Positions 43,043 to 49,216 of a DNA stretch of 64,000 nucleotides are shown piece after piece. Where the stretch lies: positions 62,001 to 126,000 of the forward strand of contig NZ_KB898042.1 in assembly GCF_000377345.1 (NCBI RefSeq), written 5' to 3'. The DNA is from Thioalkalivibrio sp. ALJ16 (GTDB taxonomy: Bacteria > Pseudomonadota > Gammaproteobacteria > Ectothiorhodospirales > Ectothiorhodospiraceae). The notes below the pieces were generated by a model. That model had not been told where the DNA came from. It did no database searches and saw only the letters and a program-made list of their open reading frames with translations. Position numbers and translations under genes: made by a program. Numbering within the stretch: the first letter of the stretch is position 1; each line of letters opens with the position of its first letter.

Positions 43043-43498
43043 ATGCCACGGAAGGCACGATCCCACCGGCTGCGGCTTGGGCGGGTTAGCGAGCGCGGAA
43101 GGATTTACCTGGTCACGGCGGTTTGCGCCGATCGGTACGCCTGGTTTTCCCAGTTCGAGCATGGGCGCTGTTGCGTCCATGCGCTGCGTGAACTGGAAGG
43201 CGAGGCGGATACACTCTGCTTCGTGGTTATGCCGGACCATCTGCACTGGTTGATGCAGCTCGAAGTTGGATCGCTCTCCCGCGTTGTGCAGAAGGTGAAG
43301 GGTTCGACGACGCGCCGAATCGGGCAGTTGAGTGGTCGACCTTGCCGGGTTTGGCAGCCGGGTTTCCACGATCGCGCTTTGCGCCGGGAAGAGGATCTCC
43401 AGGCCGTGGCTCGTTATGTGGTGGCGAACCCGCTTCGGGCTGGGCTGGTGGGCAATCTCGGTGACTATCCCCTGTGGGATGCGGTCTGGTTGGAGTGA
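43043..43498 (+). CDS. REP-associated tyrosine transposase (RAYT)
   Basis: A 151-residue Y1-type HUH endonuclease of the TnpA_REP family. The HUH motif is VMPDHLHWLMQL and the catalytic tyrosine lies in AVARYVVANPLRAGLV; the N-terminal RGRIYLVTAVCADR block is family-like. Such proteins nick and can mobilise REP sequences in single-stranded form. REP pairs flank the gene on both sides (42930-43007 and 43516-43725), the classical REPtron arrangement, and matching REPs are scattered through the window. GGGAGG precedes the start. Confidence 0.92.
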   Translation: MPRKARSHRLRLGRVSERGRIYLVTAVCADRYAWFSQFEHGRCCVHALRELEGEADTLCFVVMPDHLHWLMQLEVGSLSRVVQKVKGSTTRRIGQLSGRPCRVWQPGFHDRALRREEDLQAVARYVVANPLRAGLVGNLGDYPLWDAVWLE

Positions 43499-46024: not shown

Positions 46025-47191
46025 ATGAAAATCGCAGTCGCCGGAACCGGCTATGTCGGGCTTTCCAACGCCGTCCTGCTCGCGCAGCACCACGAGGTGG
46101 TCGCGCTGGACGTGGTGCCGGAGAAGGTCGAACAGATCAACCGCAGGCAGTCGCCGATCATCGATGCCGAGATCCAGGATTTCCTCGCGAACCGCGAACT
46201 CAACCTCAAGGCGACACTGGACAAGCAAGAGGCCTACGAAGGCGCGGACTTCATCATCATCGCCACGCCCACGGACTACGACCCGCAGACCAACTACTTC
46301 AATACCAGCACCGTCGAATCCGTGATCCGCGACGTGCTGGCGATCAACCCGCACGCCACGATGGTCATCAAGTCTACCGTGCCGGTCGGCTACACGCGCG
46401 AGATCCGCGCGCAGATGGAGACCGACAACATCCTGTTCTCTCCCGAGTTCCTGCGGGAGGGCCGGGCGCTGTACGACAACCTGCACCCGTCGCGGATCAT
46501 CGTGGGCGAGCAGTCCGACCGCGCCGAGACCTTCGCGGGCCTGCTGGCGGAAGGCGCAGTGGACGCGGACATCCCGATCCTCTTCACCAACTCCACCGAG
46601 GCCGAGGCGATCAAGCTGTTTGCCAACACCTACCTGGCCATGCGTGTGGCGTATTTCAACGAGCTGGACAGCTACGCCGAGACTCACGGACTGGAGACCC
46701 GCCAGATCATAGACGGCGTCTGCCTGGACCCTCGTATCGGTAGCCACTACAACAACCCGTCCTTCGGCTACGGCGGCTACTGCCTGCCGAAGGACACCAA
46801 GCAGCTCCTGGCGAACTACGACGAGATCCCCAACAACATCATCGGCGCGATCGTCGACGCCAACCGCACGCGCAAGGACTTCGTGGCCGACGCGGTCATT
46901 CGGCGCAATCCGCAGGTGGTGGGCATCTATCGGCTGGTGATGAAGAGCGGCTCCGACAACTTCCGTGCCTCCGCCATCCAGGGCGTGATGAAGCGCATCA
47001 AGGCCAAGGGTATCGAGGTCGTCGTCTACGAGCCGGAACTCCCGGACGACGACTTCTACCGCTCCCGCGTCATCCGCGACCTCGACGAGTTCAAGCGCAT
47101 CAGCGACGTGATCGTCGCCAACCGCATCACCGACGACATCCGCGACCAGACCGACAAAATCTACACCCGCGACCTCTTCAATAGCGACTGA
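46025..47191 (+). CDS. ugd: UDP-glucose 6-dehydrogenase
   Basis: A 388-residue NAD-dependent enzyme that oxidises UDP-glucose to UDP-glucuronate. The N-terminal Rossmann motif is [32 protein letters not shown] and [16 protein letters not shown] are substrate-binding blocks, and the catalytic Cys lies in [15 protein letters not shown]. The length and sequence style match the short Ugd of enterobacterial K-antigen loci. AAAGGAAGCAAGGG precedes the ATG. Its product would supply uronic acid to the polysaccharide locus further on. Confidence 0.95.
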
Positions 47192-47214
47192 TCAGTTTCC
47201 ACGCCTTCCCTCCC

Positions 47215-47282
47215 TTGTAGGAGGCCAGCCCTCTGGCCGATCGGATGTTGGACAGGCCCATCGGCCAGAGGGCTGGCCTCCT
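47215..47282. repeat. class B REP palindrome (full) after ugd
   Basis: GGAGGCCAGCCCTCTGGCCG and its reverse complement CGGCCAGAGGGCTGGCCTCC enclose a 17-20-base loop, a near-perfect stem of over 20 bp. It may double as the ugd terminator. Related units occur at 48497 and 49213. Its right arm ends at the proposed left boundary of the IS110 element. Confidence 0.85.
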
Positions 47283-47319
47283 TGTGTGTCGTCGCAGACG
47301 GTTCGCTACCATCTGTGGC

Positions 47320-47466
47320 ACTGGGCTCGGGGCAACCCGTTGGCCTCCTGAGGCTTTGAGCCTGATTGGTAGATCGGTCCCCGAGCCCGTTTTCATCTCG
47401 AAGTTTGCACGGTATCCAAGCCCCCCTCCGTGACGGACGGGTGAGGCTGTACGGACAAGGCGAGAG
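47320..47466 (+). ncRNA. candidate IS110 bridge RNA in the transposase leader
   Basis: GGGCTCGGGG (47323-47332) pairs perfectly with CCCCGAGCCC (47379-47388), enclosing a loop that contains TGGCCTCCT (47341-47349), identical to the DNA just left of the element (47274-47282). A second arm, TCTCG (47396-47400) with CGAGA (47461-47465), encloses CACGGTATC (47408-47416), identical to the element's right end (48472-48480), plus a small CCCTCC/GGACGGG hairpin. The order target loop then donor loop, upstream of the transposase, is that of known IS110 bridge RNAs. The right-hand guides could not be recognised by eye. Confidence 0.5.
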
Positions 47467-47472
47467 GACGAG

Positions 47473-48456
47473 ATGGCTCATATTGGCATTGATGTCAGCA
47501 AGAACAAGCTCGACTGCATGTGGGTGCGGGACCTGGAGGCGGGCAAGGTCAAGCCCAAGGTGTTCCCGAACCGCCGGGACCAGTACCCGGAACTACTCCA
47601 CTGGCTCGAGCGCAACACGGGTGAGTCGCCCGAGGCACTACATGTGTACTTGGAGGCCACCGGCATCTATCACGAACCCCTGGCGTACTGGCTGCATGAG
47701 CAGGGCGTGCGGGTCTATGTACTGAACCCGGCCCAAGTGCGCTTCCACGCCCAAGGCATGGGGGTGCGCAACAAGACGGATCGCAAGGACAGCATGATGC
47801 TGGCGCGTTACGGCATCGAACGCGCGCCCGCACCGTGGCAGCCGGAACCCCCGGAGGTGCGGGAACTCAAGCGTCTTCTGGGGCGGCTGGAGGCGCTGGA
47901 GCAGGACATCCGGCGCGAGGAGAACCGGCTGGAGAAGGCGCAGTTCAGTGAGGATGCGCTGGCCCAGGAGTCCATCGGCAACGTGCTGGAGGCCCTGCGC
48001 GAGGAACACCGGCGTCTCCAGCAGCAGATCGACGACCACTTCGACGTTCATGACCACCTGAAGCGGGATCGGGCCCTGCTGGAGAGCATCCCCGGGATCG
48101 GCCGGGTGTTATCGGCCTCGATGACCGCGACGTTGCGCAGCCGGGCGTTCAAGAGTGCCCGTCAGGCGGCGGCGTTCCATGGACTGGTGCCGGTCCAGCA
48201 GGAATCGGGCATCTCGGTCCAGCGGCGACCGCGGCTGGCGAAGGCCGGCTCCAGCCGCCTGCGACGCAAGCTCTATATGGCGGCGGTCACGGCCGCGCAC
48301 CACAATGCCGACGTTCGGGCGCAGTACCAGCGGCTGTTGCGGCGCGGCAAGGCGAAGATGGCGGCAATCGGCGCCGCGATGCGCAAGCTATTGCACATCG
48401 CCTTCGGTGTGCTGAAGTCGCAGCAGCCGTACCAGCCTCGCTGCAGCACCGGTTGA
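47473..48456 (+). CDS. IS110-family transposase (DEDD N-terminal, serine C-terminal)
   Basis: A 327-residue bridge-RNA-type recombinase. The RuvC-like DEDD domain shows GIDVSKNKLDC, YLEATGIYHEPLAYWL and NKTDRKDSMMLARYG; a coiled-coil spacer (LEALEQDIRREENRLEKAQF) leads to the Transposase_20 domain with SIPGIGRVLSASMTA, HGLVPVQQESG and KAGSSRLRRKLYMAA, which holds the catalytic serine. The frame is intact, so the element may be active. It stands alone between ugd and vapBC. Confidence 0.93.
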   Translation: MAHIGIDVSKNKLDCMWVRDLEAGKVKPKVFPNRRDQYPELLHWLERNTGESPEALHVYLEATGIYHEPLAYWLHEQGVRVYVLNPAQVRFHAQGMGVRNKTDRKDSMMLARYGIERAPAPWQPEPPEVRELKRLLGRLEALEQDIRREENRLEKAQFSEDALAQESIGNVLEALREEHRRLQQQIDDHFDVHDHLKRDRALLESIPGIGRVLSASMTATLRSRAFKSARQAAAFHGLVPVQQESGISVQRRPRLAKAGSSRLRRKLYMAAVTAAHHNADVRAQYQRLLRRGKAKMAAIGAAMRKLLHIAFGVLKSQQPYQPRCSTG

Positions 48457-48496
48457 ACCCAGTGACCGAGACACGGTATCTACACGGGGCGATTGC

Positions 48497-48570
48497 TGTA
48501 GGAGCGCAGCCCTCTGCGCGATGGGGCGCTGGGTATAACCCCCAATCGGCCAAGGGGCGAAGGATCGCTC
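48497..48570. repeat. class B REP, right arm eroded
   Basis: CTGTAGGAGCGCAGCCCTCTG then CGCGATGGGG is a complete left half. The expected right arm is only weakly recognisable in CCAATCGGCCAAGGGGCG. It lies just beyond the proposed right end of the IS110 element. Confidence 0.7.
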
Positions 48571-48581
48571 GCTCGTCTACG

Positions 48582-48620
48582 GCATCGATGCTACATTGGT
48601 AAAACGAATTATCGATCGAT
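48582..48620 (+). promoter_or_regulatory. candidate vapBC operator: two palindromes
   Basis: GCATCGATGC (48582-48591) and ATCGATCGAT (48611-48620) are both perfect 10-bp palindromes with a shared ATCGAT core, 29 bases apart and just upstream of the antitoxin gene. Toxin-antitoxin complexes usually autoregulate through such paired sites. Confidence 0.45.
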
Positions 48621-48632
48621 CAAGGTGCTGAA

Positions 48633-48839
48633 ATGGAAGCCCTCACCATCTCTCCTAAATATCAGGTCGTCATCCCCAAGGCGGTACGCGAGGCGCTGCA
48701 TCTTCGTGCCGGCCAGAAGGTCCAGATTGTGGCGTACGACGACCGTATCGAGCTGATTCCCGAACGGCGCATGAGCGAGATGCGGGGGTTTCTCAAGGGC
48801 ATTAACCCCGACATCCCGCGCGACGGAGACCGCGTGTGA
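48633..48839 (+). CDS. vapB: AbrB/MazE-fold antitoxin (VapB type)
   Basis: A 68-residue swapped-hairpin DNA-binding protein: MEALTISPKYQVVIPKAVRE is the classical SpoVT/AbrB start, followed by LHLRAGQKVQIVAYDDRIEL. The C-terminal tail (RRMSEMRGFLKGINPDIPRD) would wrap the toxin. It overlaps vapC by four bases. Two palindromes upstream are candidate operators. Confidence 0.9.
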   Translation: MEALTISPKYQVVIPKAVREALHLRAGQKVQIVAYDDRIELIPERRMSEMRGFLKGINPDIPRDGDRV

Positions 48840-49216
48840 ACGTGGTCGATTCGTCCGCGTGGCTGGAATACTTTGCCGACGGCCCGAACGCCGATGTGTT
48901 TGCAGACGCAATCGAAACCACGGCAGAACTGATCGTGCCCACGCTCAGCCTCTATGAAGTCTTCAAACGGGTGCTCCAACAACGAGGCGAGGCAGCGGCC
49001 CTGCAGGCGGCCGCACTGATGCAGCAGGGCGAACTCGTCGAACTCACGGGGCCTCTGGCCCTGTCCGCTGCCCGTCTCGGCGCCCAACATGGCCTCCCGC
49101 TCGCCGACAGCATCATCTACGCCACCGCGCGCGCCCATCAGGCCGACCTCTGGACCCAGGACGCGGATTTCGACGGGCTTCCAGCTGTTCACTACATCCC
49201 GAAGCCTTCCCCGTAG
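48836..49216 (+). CDS. vapC: PIN-domain ribonuclease toxin (VapC type)
   Basis: A 126-residue PIN-domain protein from a GTG start. The acidic catalytic residues are visible: D in NVVDSSAWLEYF, E in PTLSLYEVFKR, D in GLPLADSIIYATA and D in LWTQDADFDGL. VapC toxins cleave specific tRNA or rRNA. The stop codon TAG lies inside the first four bases of the adjacent class B REP (GTAGGAGG), so the REP supplies the end of the gene. Confidence 0.93.
   Translation: MNVVDSSAWLEYFADGPNADVFADAIETTAELIVPTLSLYEVFKRVLQQRGEAAALQAAALMQQGELVELTGPLALSAARLGAQHGLPLADSIIYATARAHQADLWTQDADFDGLPAVHYIPKPSP

What the first reader, a model, noticed from the sequence alone, without database searches (positions are those of the whole stretch)
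47320..47466. IS110 leader looks like a bridge RNA: target-guide match
A perfect 10-bp stem (47323-47332 with 47379-47388) encloses TGGCCTCCT at 47341-47349, which is identical to the nine bases immediately left of the proposed element boundary (47274-47282), ending in CT. IS110 bridge RNAs carry a target-binding loop whose left guide has the same sequence as the left target strand, and CT cores are known in the family. The match is in the right loop, strand and order. A chance 9-mer match is possible because REP arms are GC-rich.
Basis: partly seen in the sequence, partly recalled or inferred. Interest (0 to 1): 0.8.

Follow-up and report, generated by a model that had tools for sequence, protein, structure and literature searches.

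The report
IS110 bridge RNA guiding REP insertion
A small jumping gene in a Thioalkalivibrio chromosome carries the DNA for a guide RNA whose sequence spells out the repeat it landed in; comparing about 40 relatives confirms the guide, but it is a new member of the already known IS110 bridge-RNA kind.

Summary
47473-48456 encodes an IS110-family recombinase homologous to IS621 (PDB E=1e-55; catalytic DEDD and Ser aligned). Empty orthologous sites in two relatives fix the element at 47283-48481, inserted at a CT core in a GTAG-type REP palindrome arm (GGCCTCCT|AC). The leader carries all four bridge-RNA guides: LTG TGGCCTCCT (47341-47349), RTG GTAG (47369-47372), LDG CACGGTATC (47408-47416), RDG ACAAG (47455-47459). 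Across 34 non-redundant related insertions the seven variable LTG bases match the element's own left flank at 6.26/7, against 2.81/7 with swapped flanks (z=15; maximum of 1000 permutations 3.62). RTG, LDG, RDG and the loop-closing stem also covary. The RE-LE junction of the predicted circle recreates a sigma70-like promoter. Transcription and activity are untested. Bridge RNAs of REP-targeting IS110 elements are published (IS621), so this is a new member of a known kind. The modest extra is a two-part address: a near-constant RTG/core (GTAG, the REP tetranucleotide mark) and a fast-changing LTG that follows each host's REP stem.

The parts
47219..47282 (.). GTAG-type REP palindrome (TGTAGGAGGCCAGCCCTCTGGCCGAT...ATCGGCCAGAGGGCTGGCCTCCT) that served as target; its last bases form the left target LT, ending in the CT core
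   Evidence: Repeated elsewhere in the genome; the 11-mer TGGCCTCCTAC occurs 8 times in the genome and the reversed control 0 times; empty orthologous sites
47281..47282 (+). CT core, left copy
   Evidence: CT is the only overlap between left and right junctions and occurs once in the empty sites
47283..48481 (+). IS110 element, left end to right end including the right CT core (1199 bp)
   Evidence: Empty sites L081 and L082; the same termini TGTGTN...GGTATCT in all relatives
47290..47466 (+). predicted bridge RNA (about 177 nt; the 5' end is inferred from the circle-junction promoter, the 3' end is by analogy with IS621)
   Evidence: Guides and stems, promoter position; no transcript data
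47291..47315 (+). 5' stem-loop of the bridge RNA, with a loop related to (TTA)GCTACC that is conserved in close relatives
   Evidence: Folds in nearly all relatives with changing stem sequence; window fold
47323..47332 (+). 5' arm of the stem closing the target-binding loop
   Evidence: Stem own score 9.54 against swapped 6.38, 0 of 2000 permutations reach it
47341..47349 (+). left target guide (LTG) TGGCCTCCT
   Evidence: Identical to 47274-47282; covariation z=15
47369..47372 (+). right target guide (RTG) GTAG, pairing with CTAC (right flank)
   Evidence: 25 of 25 distinct cases with RTG GTAG and a known flank have CTAC; variants GGAG/CTCC and TCAG/CTGA covary
47379..47388 (+). 3' arm of the stem closing the target-binding loop
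47408..47416 (+). left donor guide (LDG) CACGGTATC, identical to the right end 48472-48480
   Evidence: own 8.20/9 against swapped 7.72/9, 0 of 5000 permutations
47455..47459 (+). right donor guide (RDG) ACAAG, complement of CTTGT at the left junction 47281-47285
   Evidence: Covaries: ATAAG with CTTAT (L074, L094), ACGAG with CTCGT (L097)
47473..48456 (+). IS110-family DEDD/Ser recombinase, 327 aa, with D7, E61, D103, D106, S245
   Evidence: Pfam PF01548+PF02371; IS621 8wt6 E=1.1e-55; NCBIfam IS110 family RNA-guided transposase; residues printed
48453..48481 (+). short right end with the -35-like TTGAAC and the start of the -10 TATCT(T) that is completed across the circle junction
48480..48483 (+). 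CT core, right copy, plus AC: the right target CTAC bound by the RTG

Best explanation
This is an IS621-like IS110 insertion sequence. Its left-end leader encodes a bridge RNA with a 5' stem-loop, a target-binding loop (LTG TGGCCTCCT, RTG GTAG) and a donor-binding loop (LDG CACGGTATC, RDG ACAAG). The recombinase excises the element as a circle joined at a CT core. The circle junction recreates a promoter (TTGAAC-18-TATCTT) that transcribes the bridge RNA. Two dimers hold target and donor loops, the RNA pairs with the REP arm TGGCCTCCT|AC and with the RE-LE junction, and the serine-based enzyme exchanges strands next to CT, putting the element between CT and AC of the REP's CCTAC end. Shown here by sequence: element ends, target, all four guide matches with covariation, stem covariation, catalytic residues. 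Inferred from IS621: transcription, circle formation, RNP assembly and the chemistry.
For: Exact observation. Empty sites at the orthologous locus in two relatives. An independent insertion of a 97% identical copy (L062) elsewhere with the same guide and the left flank GGGCTGGCCTCCT. LTG-flank covariation over 34 non-redundant insertions, z=15, single peak at 47341. RTG, LDG and RDG covariation. Closing stem covariation 0/2000. Junction promoter in close relatives. IS621 homology with all catalytic residues. Domain families.
Against: No RNA or activity data. No Rfam model exists to test against. The RNA energy z-score alone is only -2.0, and RNAalifold on a plain MAFFT alignment failed to recover the closing stem. 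The second core base is not paired in the LDG of this and most copies (TATCC against TATCT). A few insertions match their guide poorly (L048, inserted in another copy of its own transposase gene; L096; L053).
Confidence: 0.96

Rival explanations
1. The 9-base match is a coincidence of GC-rich palindrome words; the leader is an ordinary structured 5' UTR or antisense-regulated leader of a transposase gene.
For: REP arms recur in the genome, and structured leaders that regulate expression are known for IS110 relatives (ISPpu9, PMC8450116).
Against: 18/20,000 chance for the first match and 4/20,000 for the LDG match; covariation z=15 across relatives; RTG, LDG and RDG also match and covary.
Confidence: 0.01
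2. The leader word is a remnant of the target: part of a REP was captured in the leader by recombination, so the match reflects shared ancestry of the DNA and not guide function.
For: The guide is identical to a REP arm segment in this window.
Against: The match is confined to 9 nt ending exactly at the core, no REP stem or GTAG half lies beside it, the sequence sits in the same structural position in all relatives, and targets that are not obvious palindromes are matched too (L108/L111 ACAAAGCCT, L094, L097).
Confidence: 0.02
3. It is a bridge RNA but the copy is dead: a fossil whose guide still matches by descent.
For: Single intact copy in this genome.
Against: Intact ORF with all catalytic residues, all four guides intact, a 97% identical copy inserted at an independent REP in another species (L062), and nine full or near-full copies in that genome.
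Confidence: 0.1

Closest known systems
IS621 (E. coli) bridge RNA and recombinase (PMC11208160, PMC11208158)
   Same: Recombinase homology E=1e-55 with the DEDD and Ser residues; bridge RNA in the left end, about 177 nt; 5' stem-loop, then target loop, then donor loop; 9-nt LTG including the CT core; 4-nt RTG; promoter rebuilt across the circle junction; REP target
   Different: Different LTG and hence a different REP family; different stem sequences; LDG does not pair the second core base in most copies; some relatives use longer RTGs with non-CTAC targets
IS110-type seekRNA of ISEc21 (PMC11187229)
   Same: RNA from the non-coding region upstream of tnp, bottom-strand match before top-strand complement
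   Different: Different target; described there as a seekRNA
IS1111 group (ISPa11, IS4321, ISKpn4)
   Same: DEDD transposase, RNA-guided; ISPa11 also targets REPs
   Different: RNA in the right end and long subterminal inverted repeats; here the RNA is in the left end
ISPpu9 / ISPpu10 in REPs of Pseudomonas putida (PMC1525189, PMC8450116)
   Same: IS110-related elements inserted in REPs
   Different: Different sequences; only their REP targeting and leader regulation were read here

Membership tests
IS110 family (IS110 group), bridge-RNA type | DEDD RuvC-like domain plus Tnp domain with conserved Ser | tested here: met
   PF01548 E=4.5e-23, PF02371 E=1.6e-22; D7, E61, D103, D106, S245 aligned with IS621 D11, E60, D102, D105, S241
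IS110 family (IS110 group), bridge-RNA type | Long non-coding left end, short right end | tested here: met
   Left end 190 nt, right end about 25 nt
IS110 family (IS110 group), bridge-RNA type | Scarless insertion at a dinucleotide core | tested here: met
   Empty sites differ from the occupied site only by the element and one CT
IS110 family (IS110 group), bridge-RNA type | Target-binding loop with LTG and RTG matching target, covarying | tested here: met
IS110 family (IS110 group), bridge-RNA type | Donor-binding loop with LDG and RDG matching the RE-LE junction, covarying | tested here: met
   the second core base of the LDG is unpaired in most copies
IS110 family (IS110 group), bridge-RNA type | Promoter rebuilt at the circular RE-LE junction | tested here: met
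   TTGAAC-18-TATCTT in the window element; TTGNNN-17-TATCTT in close relatives; sequence match only
IS110 family (IS110 group), bridge-RNA type | RNA expressed and bound by recombinase; RNA-guided recombination | not testable with these tools
   needs RNA sequencing and a recombination assay
IS1111 group | Long right end carrying the RNA and long subterminal inverted repeats | tested here: not met
   Right end about 25 nt, guides in the left end

The most novel reading that the evidence does not exclude
In this clade the bridge RNA splits its address in two: a near-constant RTG plus core (GTAG) that reads the tetranucleotide marking REPs, and a fast-changing LTG that reads the host-specific REP stem, so the element follows the host's REP families as they change. 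Insertion between CT and AC would break the GTAG mark from its stem and might take that REP away from the host's REP transposase.
Probability: 0.5. Interest if true: 0.45.

Novelty: new member of a known kind. Interest (0 to 1): 0.36.

Why it matters
It adds a well-supported, naturally varying series of bridge RNAs (26 distinct LTG 7-mers in close and distant relatives) with known targets, including three copies in one Alcanivorax genome with three different guides. This makes retargeting of RNA-guided recombinases traceable in nature. It also links the constant half of the target guide to the GTAG mark of REPs, which explains why REPs are favoured targets. The system itself is known.

Tried and rejected
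Rfam at gathering and E-value thresholds: no bridge-RNA family; only chance microRNA-type hits on the REP hairpin. RNAalifold on a MAFFT alignment: did not recover the closing stem because the arms are too diverged for a sequence alignment; replaced by an own-versus-swapped stem test. The TBL apical stem gives only a weak signal (10/2000). A chance 9-mer match and a captured REP remnant were considered and rejected. No structure prediction was run, since IS621 and ISCro4 structures already exist.

Full report
The observation. The sequence is as described. GGGCTCGGGG at 47323-47332 pairs perfectly with CCCCGAGCCC at 47379-47388, and TGGCCTCCT at 47341-47349 inside that stem is identical to 47274-47282.

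The element. The ORF 47473-48456 (327 aa) has the two IS110 domains, PF01548 and PF02371. It matches the solved IS621 recombinase at E=1.1e-55 and ISCro4 at 5.7e-54, and NCBIfam's 'IS110 family RNA-guided transposase' above its cut-off. The residues D7, E61, D103, D106 and S245 align with D11, E60, D102, D105 and S241 of IS621, which are needed for recombination (PMC11208158). The host is a Thioalkalivibrio: the nearest relatives are Thioalkalivibrio records.

The boundaries. Joining 46801-47282 to 48482-49200 and comparing with relatives gives uninterrupted sites next to the same downstream genes: L081 reads CCCATCGGCCAGAGGGCTGGCCTCCTACACGG across the joint, and L082 GGCTGGCCTCCTACAGGG. In L082 the upstream UDP-glucose dehydrogenase-like gene also lies nearby, with further REPs between. 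The element is therefore 47283-48481, with one CT on each side in the occupied site and one CT in the empty site. The target is the arm of a REP palindrome that ends in CCTAC, which is the complement of the GTAGG end of REPs.

The guides. The left target guide is TGGCCTCCT (47341-47349). The right target guide is GTAG (47369-47372), complement of the right flank CTAC. The left donor guide CACGGTATC (47408-47416) is identical to the right end 48472-48480, and occurred in 4 of 20,000 shuffles. The right donor guide ACAAG (47455-47459) is the complement of CTTGT across the left junction. This is the order and polarity described for IS621 (PMC11208160).

Covariation, the decisive test. Relatives from Thioalkalivibrio, Halomonas/Vreelandella, Alcanivorax and other gammaproteobacteria, 31-97% identical in the recombinase, were collected. 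Their leaders, left flanks and right flanks were cut out by the conserved termini and the leaders aligned. With flanks dealt out among elements the mean is 2.81 and the highest of 1000 permutations 3.62. Scanning every 7-mer position of the leader, 47341 gives z=15 and no other position exceeds z=2.1. Eighteen of 35 distinct cases match at 7/7 and 13 at 6/7. Permutation does not correct for relatedness, but the guides and flanks differ widely (26 distinct 7-mers) and change together. Examples are CAGGCTCCT, CGCATCCT, TGCACCCT, CCCATCCT, CCGGCCCCT and CAAAGCCT.

The other guides. Wherever the RTG is GTAG and the right flank is known (25 of 25 distinct cases), the flank is CTAC. Where the RTG differs, the flank differs with it: GGAG with CTCC in L053 (seven bases AGAGGAG) and TCAG with CTGA in L096 (six bases) and L097 (eight bases). 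L108 has an imperfect pair. The LDG follows the right end (ACGG, ATGG, ACAG and GGAG types; own 8.20/9 against 7.72/9, 0 of 5000 permutations). The RDG follows the left end (ATAAG with CTTAT, ACGAG with CTCGT).

Structure. The stem closing the target loop changes sequence from one relative to the next while staying paired: own 9.54 against swapped 6.38, 0 of 2000 permutations. The donor-loop apical stem also exceeds its permutations (0/2000), and the target-loop apical stem does so weakly (10/2000). A 5' hairpin folds in nearly all relatives, with a GCTACC-type loop in the close ones. The single-sequence energy z-score is only -2.0, and an unguided RNAalifold run failed for reasons of alignment.

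Expression. In the predicted circle, the right end, core and left end together form TTGAAC-18-TATCTT in this element and TTGNNN-17-TATCTT in close relatives. In the 40-50% identical clade the best site is TTGACN-17-TATCTT moved seven bases into the left end. This agrees with the published circle-junction promoter of IS621. It puts the start of the RNA near 47290. This is sequence evidence only.

Two copies of the same element. L062 in another Thioalkalivibrio genome is 97% identical in the recombinase, has the same LTG and sits at a different locus with left flank GGGCTGGCCTCCT and right flank CTACGGGG.

What is known and what is added. Bridge RNAs and seekRNAs of IS110 elements, their REP targets, the circle promoter and natural reprogramming are published (PMC11208160, PMC11208158, PMC11187229; REPs as targets PMC1525189). 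This locus is a new member. The extra observation is that RTG plus core is nearly constant (28 of 35 GTAG) while the LTG is near maximal diversity at six positions. GTAG is the tetranucleotide that marks REPs and their REP-associated tyrosine transposases (PMC2817692, PMC3733652). In 29 of 43 cases the left target has an inverted partner upstream, as expected of a palindrome arm. I read this as a two-part address, constant REP mark plus variable stem; it is an inference and was not tested on a wider, tree-corrected sample. I found no paper stating it, in a library that lacks most subscription journals.

Limits. No RNA, circle or activity was measured. Relatedness of the sequences makes permutation counts an upper view of significance. 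Three insertions (L048, L053, L096) match poorly; L048 lies inside another copy of its own transposase gene.

Noticed in passing
window 43043-43498 (+): A 151-aa ORF with a Y1_Tnp match (PF01797), a candidate REP-associated tyrosine transposase, about 4 kb from the REP that the element entered; four Y1_Tnp matches in the genome.
   Followed up: partly
window 48633-49216 (+): A short ORF resembling an AbrB-type antitoxin followed by a PIN-domain ORF, a VapBC-like pair, immediately right of the element and conserved in relatives without the insertion.
   Followed up: partly
L051, L054, L055 (Alcanivorax sp. DG881): Three copies in one genome carry three different LTGs (AGTCGACCT, ATTCGACCT, ATCCGACCT); two of the three match their own flank 9/9, the third 8/9. 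A natural retargeting series inside one genome.
   Followed up: partly
L019, L020, L035, L036: A second IS110 lineage about 32-33% identical in Thioalkalivibrio genomes; L019 and L020 sit in the same REP arm class as the window element, three bases closer to the stem, with an apparent 7-nt RTG GTAGGAG matching CTCCTAC.
   Followed up: partly
window 47408-47417 and relatives: The LDG pairs the C of the CT core but not the T in most copies (TATCC against TATCT), while the most distant copies (L074, L097, L098) have TATCT.
   Followed up: no
L108, L109, L111: Halomonas-family copies at a non-REP-looking target ending GGACAAAGCCT or GGACGAAGCCT, with guide ACAAAGCCT; nature of the target unknown.
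   Followed up: no
L048 (Halomonas beimenensis), L053: The element lies inside, or directly behind, the 5' part of another copy of its own transposase gene; the left flank does not match the guide well, suggesting off-target or tandem insertion.
   Followed up: no
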